Origin: Antennarius striatus
Lineage: Eukaryota; Chordata; Actinopteri; Lophiiformes; Antennariidae
Direction of reading: 5' to 3'
Length of the DNA stretch: 64,000 nucleotides
Assembly (NCBI RefSeq): GCF_040054535.1
Contig: NC_090777.1
Location: forward strand, 15,718,501 to 15,782,500
Below the pieces are notes generated by a model that made no database searches, had not been told where the DNA came from, and saw only the letters and a program-made list of their open reading frames with translations. Every line of letters starts with the position of its first letter. Position 1 is the first letter of the stretch. Below, one piece after another: positions 52,148 to 63,115 of this stretch. The position numbers were made by a program, and so were the translations under genes.

Positions 52148-52266
52148 GGCGAGGCCTCAGCAGTGCCGATTGGTGGACGTGCAACAGAGCCCAGTCCTGG
52201 ATGACCAGCAGATGTGATGCCTCATGCAGCACCAAGTGTCAGGGACTGGAGCTAATAACACCAGAG
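52148..52266 (+). pseudogene. shmt2 relic, exon-2-like patch
   Basis: Reads WWTCNRAQSWMTSRCDA, then KCQGLELITPE, followed by a good donor, CCAGAG|gtgagg. The family has WTGQESL...DPEMW...DRQCRGLELIASE, with the exon junction after SE. Small deletions relative to the family shift part of the frame. The left boundary is approximate. Confidence 0.75.
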
Positions 52267-52904
52267 GTGAGGTTCACAGATCAGAAGGAGATTGACGCAG
52301 GCTGAGGAGTGGTGGTGGTTAGGGTTTCAAGGTATGGTTAATAACCTCAGTGACACTCATACTTACAAGATCTGGAAAAGGTATTAAAATTACTGAAAGC
52401 AATAAAACCAAAAATAGCTCCTTCCAAAATTCCACTTATGTCTTCGAACCCAGTGCATATACAGAACTACAGGATGTCAGATTAATGTAAAAAATATAAT
52501 ATAACAAGATTAATTGCCTGGAAAAAAATCGCACCAACTATAAATGTGACACATCTCACTCATTATTAAATGCACTCACTATGAAAGGTAAGAGTGCATC
52601 ACTACTAATACATAATGAAGTCATGAAATTACTCTGAGTCTGTATGCTGCTCAAACCGTCCATTAGCCAGCAATCATAAACCATACGAACATACTTTAAC
52701 TTTGAATCAGGTCATGTCATATCAAAGCTCAAAACTTTCTCAAAAAATCTTTTTACTTGCTTACTTGCACAGGTACTGGAGAAATTGTTTTTGAATTAAT
52801 AAACTCTGGTTTTAACATGCACAGACTTTGTCAGCTTAAATTCCTCTGTCTCACCAGCCTCTTGTGGTCAGCGTGTTGGCAAATGAGGTTGTGCCCAAAT
52901 ATAA

Positions 52905-53205
52905 TTCCATCTATCCATTTTCTGGTAGACGAGATGATCACAATCGTCTCATCTACAGCTGCTCATCTGTCTTGTGGGTCCAGGTCTGCTGGAGCCTCTC
53001 TCAGTTGGCTACAAGTGAAAGGTTGGGTTGTCCCTGGATAAGACGCTGGCTCTTTGCAGTCCCAAAAAAAAGATGAACAACAGTTGCGTGTTTTTGGAAG
53101 TGGGAGGAAGCTGGAGAACCCAGAAAGAACCCACACAGACACAGGGAGAACATACTGTGAGTACAGTACTACCCACTGCGACACTGTGCTGCTCTAAATA
53201 TTATT
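52905..53205 (-). mobile_element. tRNA-derived SINE, minus strand
   Basis: Inverted relative of the SINE at 13406-13772: contains the reverse complement of the ggttctccggcttcctccca block, the catgttctccctgtg block and a tail near 52910 (tctatccattttctg). Lies in an intron of the shmt2 relic. Ends approximate. Confidence 0.65.
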
Positions 53206-53840
53206 CAATGAAAAGAAAAGCATGTTTATTCAGCCCAAAAGACTTCACAGTCACTATTCAAAATGTAAATGTGAAAATTGTGTCTGTGCAAAAATCAAAA
53301 CATGCACAAATGCAGCTAAATAGTGACCTTTCAGTATACTTATAATTTGTTGGGTTTGATCCACCTAAAATCTTCTGTGAGGTCAGGTAAGATGCCATTT
53401 GTTGTTGTTTGCGCTTTTCTGTGGACTGAAATGATGTCAGGAAGCAAGAAAAGCAATGTAAACTGCTGAGGAGCCTCCTTTAGCAGGGCAACCAAAAGTC
53501 AGCAAAGCTTCTAGCGTGTTCTTTTGAGAGTCCACTGAGATGTCATTCGGTTTTTTCCATTGATTTCTTTTAAGTGGAGGCTGTTGGGAAAAGAAGGGCG
53601 CTTTCCTTCTTTTATTTTCCAGCAATTCTGCATCTACAGCATTATCAGTCATAATGACATCTGAAAGGTCTTCATCTTCTTGTGCACGTCAGTCACCACT
53701 GCAGGCTGAGTCCCACGGAGACTTTCAGTTTTTGTTTTTTTTGCTGCAACACACTGAAATGATCCCATTAGATTCATACACTGATTTCTGCCATTGAACA
53801 CCACATCTTAAGTTGAGACTGGAGGGAAGGAGTGATCTCT

Positions 53841-53975
53841 GTGTGTGTGTGTGTGTGTGTGTGTGTGTGTGTGTGTGTGTGTATGTGTGTGTGTGTGTGT
53901 GTGTGTGTGTGTGTGTGTGTGTGTGTGTGTGTGTGTGTGTGTGTGTGTGTGTGTGTGTGTGTGTGTGTGTGTGTG
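53841..53975. repeat. (TG)n microsatellite
   Basis: About 67 TG units with one TA interruption near 53882. Confidence 0.97.
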
Positions 53976-60576: not shown

Positions 60577-61811
60577 GGTGAACCACACAACCACTGGTCT
60601 TAGTGGACCTTTGACTTTCTAGGATGGAAGGGGCAGAGCTTGTTCCATTACACCAGCGCTTCTCAAATATTGCAATGTCAGGGAGGGTGCGTTGACGCTG
60701 GGGAAAATGCTTTTTTTGCCGTACTAGAATGAAGTGTAATTGCACATCCACCACAGTAATTAGCAGTGGTGTTCTCATTGTCAGGTGTGTGCAGGGATTA
60801 TTAGCTCTAAGGTGTAGGGTTAGTCGATATGAAGGGCAGTAAATGAACCCTCAAGAGACAACATGAAAACATTTTAACAGGGATGAAAAGAAAGCCAGAG
60901 AGAGATGAAGATCATGAGACATAAGCAAGTCACCCGAAAACTAAGACGAGGACCTATGAAGAAGCACACAGACCGGTGTGTTTACTGTGTCTAATAATGC
61001 TGGCAGCGGACAGCATGAAGCCTAATAAATTAAGACGCTACTTAAAAACATTACACCCCAATCACGCTGATAAACCACTGGAGTTTTTCAGTGAAAATGT
61101 GCTGAATATTGCCATCAATCATCCCGCTTTGTGAATGCTACTTCAGTAAACCAGCAAGCTCTGTTTGCATTATATAGGGTGGAGCTGAAACCATAGCAGA
61201 GGAGCTGAAACATTGAGCAGGAGCTGAGAGTTCAGTATCACTGCCTAAACAAGTTCATTGTAACCATTAATCCTGACTTCCTCATTTTAATGAAAAAAAA
61301 GAGAAAAGAAAAATCCACAAATTGTTCTATTCATTGTTGGTTTGTAGGTTAAGGTGTTTTATATATTTTTCTCCCCAGTTAATTTTACCGAGCTGAATTT
61401 GTTATTATTTAATGATTTTATTTAATTTATTTTTCAGTATCAAATGGGGCAATAAGTTGGTCAAAAATGTTTAAAGTTTAACTAAAGTCTTTTTTTAAAT
61501 TTCAGGCAAATTAATGCACTCAAAATCTTTTTATAAAATTAGTCATTGTCATAAATTGAACTATATTCCTTTTTTTCTCCTTTGTTTTCTTTAATGTTAA
61601 TAAGGATACAATGTTATGCAGAGGTGTACTTATAGTAATTTTATAGAAAAATTATATTTATACTGTAGCTGCAGCAGAGAGTGGGGAGATGTGAATTGTT
61701 TTCTTCTTGCTAGGGATGGCGTAACAGAAAATAATTGAGAAGCATTGCATTACACCAAGATTACTATGCCCAGAAACAAGAATGCTCTAACTCCAGGAGA
61801 ACTCAGTGTTG
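60577..61811 (+). pseudogene. shmt2 relic exon split by a hAT element
   Basis: Acceptor cctctgtcag|GGTGAAC, then caaccactggtcttagtgga (family GGTDNHLVLVDL) up to ggcagagcttgttccattac (family AE..LELVSIT). The hAT element then intervenes (60654-61747 plus duplicated site). The exon resumes with accaagattactatgcccag (ANKNTCPG) and aagaatgctctaactccagg (KSALTPG), closing with ctcagtgttg|gtcctc. It contains a stop (ctttctag) and small deletions. Confidence 0.8.
60654..61747 (+). mobile_element. hAT element with ZBED-like fragment, inside a shmt2 relic exon
   Basis: Exact 8-bp duplication CATTACAC at 60646-60653 and 61748-61755. Ends CAGCGCTTCTCAAAT and, inverted from the right, CAATGCTTCTCAATT. 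On the plus strand about 60970-61130 reads RPVCLLCLIMLAADSMKPNK, then LRRYLKTLHPNHADKPLEFF, the BED finger (Cys-Cys-His-His) and following stretch of a ZBED5/Buster-type hAT transposase, ending in a stop. No catalytic domain remains. Confidence 0.93.
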
Positions 61812-61999
61812 GTCCTCAAATTACTTCATGAAAAATTTCCAGGATTTTCCAGGATTGTCAAATCTGTTAACTCCATGTGCGCTCCGTCTACATCTCTCGC
61901 CATAGCGATCATTATGTTCTTCATTCTTCTACAACTTCATCAACAGCTGTTCCTCTTTTTTTGATTCCTGCCTTCTTTTTATGTGTCTTTCTTTGACAG

Positions 62000-62094
62000 G
62001 AACTTTGACATCCCCATGGTTCAAAGCGGCAGACTTTTTTTTTGAAAAGGTTGACGAGTATTTTATTGATGAAGGGATTCAGATCACAATGAAT
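62000..62094 (+). pseudogene. shmt2 relic, penultimate exon patch
   Basis: Acceptor ctttgacag|GAACTTTG. Reading LTSPWFKAADFFFEKVDEYF, then IDEGIQITMN, then a donor-like gtgagt. The family has LTSRQFKEADFEKVV.FIDEGIQIA. Extra T residues add Phe-Phe, and a further insertion adds bases before TTTATTGATG. Confidence 0.83.
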
Positions 62095-62989
62095 GTGAGT
62101 GAGGAAGATATCTTTCTGGTTTCAGTAGACTTCAGTTCATCTAGAATTTCAGGTTCTATAGTGATACAACCTGATGACATACTGTTTGTTACGGGATTTC
62201 TTACTAAAGAGAATGATGGGTTATAATTTTGATATAAATTGGGGGAAAAAAAGCTGAGCCATTACTCTAAAATATTTAGAATTGTGTGAGATTTCGGTGG
62301 AGTGCTGCCTGTATAAACGAACCCGTAGTTGTCCCTTACTTAGGTGACAAAGAAGATTTAATGCAACAATCGTGTATTAAATCATCTCTTCATACCGTCA
62401 TGTACCTTACCTCATACCTTCATACCTCCACCTGATGTAGGATGGACATAATATTAGAAAAACCTGCCAAAGCAATGCAGTACAATCTCAGAGCACAACA
62501 AACTACAGTCTCAACATTGTCAGAGCAGATTTGTAATGCATCTTCGACAAAACTGGACATGTTGGAGGATTTATTCCAGAAATGTTATTTTGTAAGGTTG
62601 CAGGACTTCTAGCTGTGATAGCAGCTGAGTGTAATCTTCAGTATTTAAGAAATAAATGAAATGACAGAAGAAAAGGTGGGATAGTAGTATTCTACCATCA
62701 TAAATAAATATTGGTATACGTAGTTATTAATATATTTATACAGAAGGGACCGGGTCATTTTACATTATTTATGCAACTTTAGCTGTTCATTGTGAAGCAC
62801 GGACTGTCTAACCTTTTAAGTTATCAAGAAATATTTTTCTCAGGCGAAAGTTCAGTAACCCAGTGAGTCTCTTTTTTAAGAAAGTTAAGTAAAATGTCCA
62901 GTTTGCTTCTCAACCACGATGTTTTCATTCACTATGTATCAGGTTGAAACGACAGACCTTGTTGTTGTCTGTCCTCTGTCCTCTTACAG

Positions 62990-63115
62990 AACATCTGACC
63001 AGCTTCATGTTCCTGCTGCTGAACAACCCAGAATGCCGTTCTGCATCACAGAGCTCTGCCAATGGGTGGAGCTATTTACCAGACCCTTCGGCAGACTGGG
63101 ATTCATGGGTGGCTG
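62990..63115 (+). pseudogene. shmt2 relic, terminal exon patch
   Basis: A strong acceptor (pyrimidine-rich, ctcttacag) precedes it. One frame gives LTSFMFLLLNNPECR (family LQDFK.FLL.DPE), the next frame gives ITELCQWVELFTRPFGRLGF (family AELRQRVE.FARPFPMPGF). A frameshift near 63045 therefore separates the two halves. Confidence 0.78.

What the first reader, a model, noticed from the sequence alone, without database searches (positions are those of the whole stretch)
52148..63115. Decayed shmt2 at its ancestral place next to nxph4
At least seven patches in correct order and strand resemble SHMT2 exons. Introns persist, but there are frameshifts, a stop and missing exons, including the one with the PLP-binding lysine. 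SHMT2 adjoins NXPH4 in human, so a core one-carbon gene seems to have died in place. Either a second copy (for example a genome-duplication partner) carries the function, or the lineage lost mitochondrial SHMT.
Basis: partly seen in the sequence, partly recalled or inferred. Interest (0 to 1): 0.82.

Follow-up and report, generated by a model that had tools for sequence, protein, structure and literature searches.

The report
Dead duplicate of fish shmt2 gene
A fish has lost one of its two copies of the mitochondrial gene shmt2, whose broken remains still sit beside their old neighbour nxph4 while the other copy looks intact on another chromosome: a well-documented but ordinary kind of duplicate-gene loss.

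Summary
Nine of twelve shmt2 exons survive as collinear + strand fragments between window 50548 and 63104, just downstream of nxph4. Eight fragments each beat all 400 random intervals. Exons 4, 5 and 7 (7 carries the PLP lysine) are not detectable. Stops, indels, a likely frameshift and lost splice donors break the rest; introns persist, so it is not a retrocopy.

The same genome keeps an intact-looking shmt2 on contig C5, also just 3' of an nxph4 paralogue on the same strand. Spiny-rayed fish proteins form two shmt2 groups: the remnant joins group b (100/99), C5 joins group a. So this is the b copy of an old duplicate pair, probably but not proven from the teleost genome duplication, lost in this lineage while shmt2a stayed. 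At 84 sites invariant in 45 intact proteins the remnant differs at 34; single intact b proteins differ at 0-3. That fits 0.2-0.3 neutral substitutions per site since loss. Loss of mitochondrial SHMT is not supported.

The parts
48752..49711 (+). nxph4 (b copy) main exon and its open frame, the intact neighbour upstream
   Evidence: Pfam Neurexophilin E 3.7e-57; tblastn to the nxph4 part of P0004 at 49007-49660
50548..50606 (+). shmt2b exon 1 remnant: upstream stretch, ATG at 50575, donor GTAAGT at 50607
   Evidence: 0 of 1000 nulls as good for 5 of 6 queries, 16 of 1000 for the sixth
52132..52266 (+). exon 2 remnant; middle reads in another frame with TGA at 52215-52217; donor GT kept
   Evidence: score 69, null max 44 of 400; other-frame middle matched by 9 of 2000 nulls
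54733..54798 (+). exon 3 remnant without its first five codons; donor GT kept
   Evidence: score 84, null max 40 of 400
54799..58265 (+). interval where exons 4 and 5 should be: not detectable
   Evidence: 176 and 67 of 400 nulls at least as good
58266..58406 (+). exon 6 remnant; acceptor AG kept, donor GT lost (reads TT at 58383)
   Evidence: score 97, null max 39 of 400; E 1e-8
58407..59542 (+). interval where exon 7 with the PLP lysine should be: not detectable; holds a tandem duplication of about 170 bases (58795-59135)
   Evidence: 370 of 400 nulls at least as good; repeat
59543..59617 (+). exon 8 remnant with TAA at 59594-59596; both ends lost
   Evidence: score 79, null max 42 of 400
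59824..59925 (+). exon 9 remnant, all 34 codons readable; acceptor kept, donor GT to GC
   Evidence: score 120, null max 37 of 400; E 2e-10
60125..60472 (+). old repeat fragment in the intron between exons 9 and 10
   Evidence: 76% identical to copies on C5 and elsewhere in the window
61757..61813 (+). exon 10 remnant, 3' end only (19 of 53 codons); donor GT kept
   Evidence: score 52, null max 36 of 400
61996..62106 (+). exon 11 remnant with two small in-frame insertions; acceptor AG kept
   Evidence: score 80, null max 36 of 400
63045..63104 (+). exon 12 remnant, middle part only; normal stop lost
   Evidence: score 48, null max 39 of 400

Best explanation
The locus is an unprocessed pseudogene of shmt2b, one of two shmt2 copies from an old duplication that also doubled the neighbour nxph4, probably the teleost-wide genome duplication. 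Shown: a second shmt2 on C5 (shmt2a) has an open, spliceable reading frame beside its own nxph4, and shmt2b lost exons, frame and splice sites in place. Inferred: shmt2b became dispensable in this lineage because shmt2a, also with a leader like other mitochondrial SHMTs, covers the reaction; its exons then drifted without constraint for tens of millions of years.
For: Nine collinear exon fragments. Introns and several splice sites kept. Twin nxph4-shmt2 arrangement, same strand, at window and at C5:7067485-7127047. Remnant groups with b-type proteins 100/99 on its own 215 columns and within them 100/98 on the full alignment. Identity 141/215 to Sebastes b against 111/215 to C5. Of 9 covered sites that separate a from b, 6 are b, 0 a, 3 other. 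34 of 84 invariant sites changed, against 0-3 in each of 18 intact b proteins.
Against: The remnant is a very long branch (1.4-1.6) with odd letter make-up, so its exact place is unsure; held as sister of C5 it is only marginally rejected (p-AU 0.055), and inside or beside b is open (p-AU 0.375). The fast b protein of Synchiropus is less like it (97/211) than the a proteins are. The a and b groups hang from an unresolved teleost fork, and the b rows I saw are all spiny-rayed fishes, so a later duplication is not excluded. The whole-genome Pfam search did not report the remnant itself, so further decayed copies could be missed. No RNA data, no b-type DNA for dN/dS.
Confidence: 0.93

Rival explanations
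1. A younger, lineage-specific segmental duplicate of the C5 nxph4-shmt2a pair that decayed fast.
For: Sister placement with C5 is only marginally rejected, p-AU 0.055.
Against: Log-likelihood 19.4 lower; 66% identity to b proteins against 52% to C5; 0 of 9 diagnostic sites in the a state; the two nxph4 copies are only about 74-84% identical in protein.
Confidence: 0.03
2. A processed retrocopy of shmt2 that landed here by chance.
For: None found.
Against: Exon fragments are separated by introns over 12.6 kb with splice sites kept at several edges, and lie in exon order beside nxph4.
Confidence: 0.005
3. The lineage lost mitochondrial SHMT altogether.
For: The shmt2b locus is beyond repair by sequence.
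Against: C5 shmt2a: 490 open codons over 11 exons with ten GT-AG introns, a leader-like N-terminus, the STTHK motif, a normal branch length of 0.083.
Confidence: 0.01
4. Part of the dead locus, for example the 5' end, was kept for another role such as a non-coding transcript or an element of nxph4.
For: The upstream stretch, ATG and consensus donor of exon 1 are kept.
Against: The kept stretch is about 13 codons, then diverges; slow neutral decay could leave it; no transcript data.
Confidence: 0.03

Closest known systems
Unprocessed pseudogenes of teleost genome-duplication partners (general class, recalled)
   Same: One of two duplicate loci decays in place while the partner stays; neighbours are duplicated too
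   Different: Loss is late: the b copy is present as an annotated protein in many spiny-rayed fishes and enough sequence remains to name nine exons
Human NXPH4-SHMT2 neighbourhood on 12q13 (order recalled)
   Same: shmt2 just 3' of nxph4 on the same strand
   Different: Here there are two such pairs, and one shmt2 is dead
Intact shmt2b of Sebastes, Scomber, Larimichthys and others (P0051, P0040, P0041)
   Same: Same family and clade as the remnant
   Different: The remnant lost exons 4, 5, 7 and differs at 34 of 84 invariant sites

Membership tests
shmt2b (origin of the remnant) | groups with b-type SHMT2 proteins | tested here: met
   100/99 with b rows on 215 columns; place inside or beside b open
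shmt2b (origin of the remnant) | b-type states at sites separating a from b | tested here: met
   6 b, 0 a, 3 other of 9 covered sites at the 90% threshold; at 100% the single site is not covered
working SHMT gene | exon with the PLP-binding lysine | tested here: not met
   exon 7 at chance, 370 of 400 nulls at least as good
working SHMT gene | open reading frame across exons | tested here: not met
   TAA in exon 8, missing exons 4, 5, 7, lost donors at exons 6 and 9
unprocessed pseudogene | exon-intron layout kept | tested here: met
   exon fragments in order over 12.6 kb; donors of exons 1, 2, 3, 10 and acceptors of 6, 9, 11 kept
unprocessed pseudogene | relaxed constraint | tested here: met
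   34 of 84 invariant sites changed against 0-3 in intact b rows; codon-model dN/dS not tested
unprocessed pseudogene | no full spliced transcript | not testable with these tools
   no RNA-seq
teleost genome-duplication pair | paralogous neighbours at both loci | tested here: met
   nxph4 at both loci, same order and strand; one search compared 144 kb of C2 with 70 kb of C5, its printed output was cut, and the only non-repeat match I saw besides shmt2 itself was nxph4
teleost genome-duplication pair | split at the base of teleosts, after gar and bowfin | tested here: inconclusive
   both groups lie in one teleost clade (100/99) beside gar and bowfin, but its inner forks are unresolved and no b row outside spiny-rayed fishes was seen

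The most novel reading that the evidence does not exclude
Two mitochondrial SHMT enzymes have been kept under purifying selection across spiny-rayed fishes since an old duplication, which suggests divided roles; this lineage is a natural knockout of the b enzyme in which shmt2a took the role back or the need for it vanished.
Probability: 0.3. Interest if true: 0.5.

Novelty: new member of a known kind. Interest (0 to 1): 0.3.

Why it matters
It shows that a duplicate of a core one-carbon enzyme, still present in many spiny-rayed fishes, can die late in one lineage without loss of the reaction. It offers a natural comparison for asking what the second mitochondrial SHMT does in fish, and warns that 'shmt2' in spiny-rayed fish can mean two genes.

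Tried and rejected
Loss of mitochondrial SHMT was set aside because of the C5 gene. A retrocopy was rejected by the kept introns and splice sites. A young duplicate of C5 was disfavoured, not excluded. Exons 4, 5 and 7 were sought in their intervals with nothing above chance. Placing the species with an 827-codon MBD6-like ORF gave no close named relative: best hit 75% and unnamed, best named one Sphaeramia at 65%. Six literature searches of the held PMC library were seen as listings with starts of abstracts (one search listed 12 of 18); I recognised none as treating two fish shmt2 genes or their loss, and 'shmt2b' had 0 papers. One paper, PMC12293503, was seen only as its listing and keyword passages; those name fish only as zebrafish. 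Subscription journals are mostly not in that library. dN/dS was not done for want of b-type DNA.

Limits of controls: null intervals came from fetched DNA of this genome (L009-L011, L014-L016, L021-L028 and window 1-48000, both strands); L012 and L013 (shmt1) and all of C5 were left out. Tree rows: 44 of the 139 proteins P0001-P0139 that searches listed, plus human SHMT2, the C5 protein and the remnant (47 rows). Synchiropus b was left out of the site counts and of the tree. The remnant row holds 215 readable residues; stretches without clear alignment were left blank.

Full report
OBSERVATION. The window is C2:15718501-15782500 of a 548 Mb, 42-contig genome. tblastn with human SHMT2 finds three fragments and with the fish's own C5 shmt2 more, on the + strand between 52.2 and 63.1 kb in exon order. 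With b-type fish proteins the matches are stronger, E 2e-10 for exon 9 and 1e-8 for exon 6. To test chance, each exon of the Sebastes b protein was aligned to its expected interval and to 400 random intervals of equal length from other fetched DNA of this genome. Exons 2, 3, 6, 8, 9, 10, 11 and 12 scored 48-120; the best null for any of the eight was 44. Exons 4, 5 and 7 were at chance (176, 67 and 370 of 400 nulls at least as good). Exon 1 was found at 50548-50606 with an ATG and a GTAAGT donor: none of 1000 nulls as good for 5 of 6 query N-termini, 16 of 1000 for the sixth. So nine of twelve exons are recognisable.

DISABLING CHANGES. A TAA interrupts exon 8 at 59594-59596. The donors of exons 6 and 9 read TT and GC in place of GT. 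The middle of exon 2 matches best in another frame than its ends and there holds a TGA; 9 of 2000 nulls score as well, so this frameshift is likely rather than certain. Exon 3 lacks its first five codons, only 19 of 53 codons of exon 10 are readable, and exon 11 has two small in-frame insertions. Exon 7, with the PLP-binding lysine, cannot be found. Other splice sites persist: GT at the donors of exons 1, 2, 3 and 10, AG at the acceptors of exons 6, 9 and 11. Introns persist, so this is not a processed copy. An old repeat fragment lies at 60125-60472 and a tandem duplication of about 170 bases at 58795-59135.

THE WORKING COPY. The Pfam SHMT model over the whole genome gave 17 matches at E 0.001 or better, 9 on C16 (7.508-7.511 Mb, +) and 8 on C5 (7.068-7.091 Mb, -); it did not report the window remnant, so it would also miss other copies this decayed. 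C16 is taken as shmt1 from its lower similarity to SHMT2, without a tree. The C5 gene splices with GT-AG at the ten introns between exons 2 and 12 into 490 open codons and keeps the STTHK motif. Its first exon is probably MLSFALRQLTR at C5:7123961-7123993, a short match with E 0.04. Upstream on the same strand is an nxph4 paralogue at C5:7126530-7127047, mirroring nxph4 at window 49007-49711. Two fish protein models, Liparis P0004 and Cirrhinus P0023, carry both the SHMT and the neurexophilin domain, as a gene caller may produce from neighbours.

WHICH COPY DIED. Searches with the C5 protein and with Sebastes P0051 show two shmt2 groups in spiny-rayed fishes; the b group includes Sebastes, Scomber, Larimichthys, Cyclopterus, cichlids, livebearers, medaka, Takifugu, Limanda, Anabas and Gadus (only the best 120 rows of each search were seen). 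In a 47-row tree the remnant falls in the b clade (100/98 for the 19-row set without Gadus b, 100/100 with it) and C5 in a 13-row a clade (100/99). On the remnant's own 215 columns, b plus remnant has 100/99. Held as sister of C5 the tree is 19.4 log-likelihood units worse with p-AU 0.055, and whether the remnant lies inside or beside b is open (p-AU 0.375); it is a long branch with odd composition. Identity is 141/215 to Sebastes b, 111/215 to C5, and at best 118/215 to any a protein; the fast Synchiropus b has only 97/211. Of 12 sites that separate a from b at 90%, the remnant covers 9: 6 b, 0 a, 3 other; C5 shows 8 a, 2 b, 2 other. The duplication postdates the split from gar and bowfin (teleost clade 100/99), but the forks inside teleosts are unresolved and no b row outside spiny-rayed fishes was seen, so the genome duplication is the likely but unproven source.

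HOW LONG AGO. At 84 sites identical in 45 intact proteins the remnant has changed at 34. Tested by leave-one-out at 70-87 sites each, 18 intact b proteins changed at 0 (ten of them), 1 (four), 2 (two) or 3 (two). Neutral simulation from C5 codons has the observed 0.405 in its 95% range at 0.2, 0.25 and 0.3 substitutions per site, but not at 0.15 or 0.4. With recalled fish neutral rates of 2.5-5e-9 per site per year that is of the order of 40-120 million years, and only readable patches were counted, which biases it low.

MECHANISM. Shown: two shmt2 loci beside two nxph4 copies, one with an open frame and one wrecked in place. Inferred: redundancy or shared duty between two mitochondrial SHMT enzymes let this lineage drop shmt2b, and neutral decay followed. 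No transcript, enzyme or codon-model data were available.

NOVELTY. Loss of a duplicate partner is a common process. I saw this instance in none of six searches of the held PMC library. Its value is as a natural absence of the b enzyme.

Noticed in passing
window 652-1044 (-), 21767-24247 (-), 36919-37353 (+): Neighbours that look like kif5a, mbd6 and stac3, as in the human NXPH4-SHMT2 region (recalled). mbd6 is backed; Pfam found no family in the kif5a-like and stac3-like ORFs, so those two names rest on eye and recall.
   Followed up: partly
window 40614-42149 (+): Reverse-transcriptase ORF of a retrotransposon (Pfam RVT_1, E 1.9e-32) with related copies in and near the C5 shmt2a gene.
   Followed up: no
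C2 flank, about 73.1-80.6 kb in window numbering (L021-L022): A retrotransposon-like unit with a 1410-codon ORF between two stretches whose translations look identical, so probably a recent insertion; seen by eye.
   Followed up: no
C2 flank, about 84.9-89.2 kb in window numbering (L023), - strand: Exons that look by eye like an actin-related protein 5 gene, to the right of the dead shmt2b; the name is recalled and untested.
   Followed up: no
P0139, Synchiropus splendidus b-type protein: Long branch (0.5) and 18 of 212 otherwise invariant sites changed: relaxed constraint, another b copy on its way out, or a poor gene model.
   Followed up: partly
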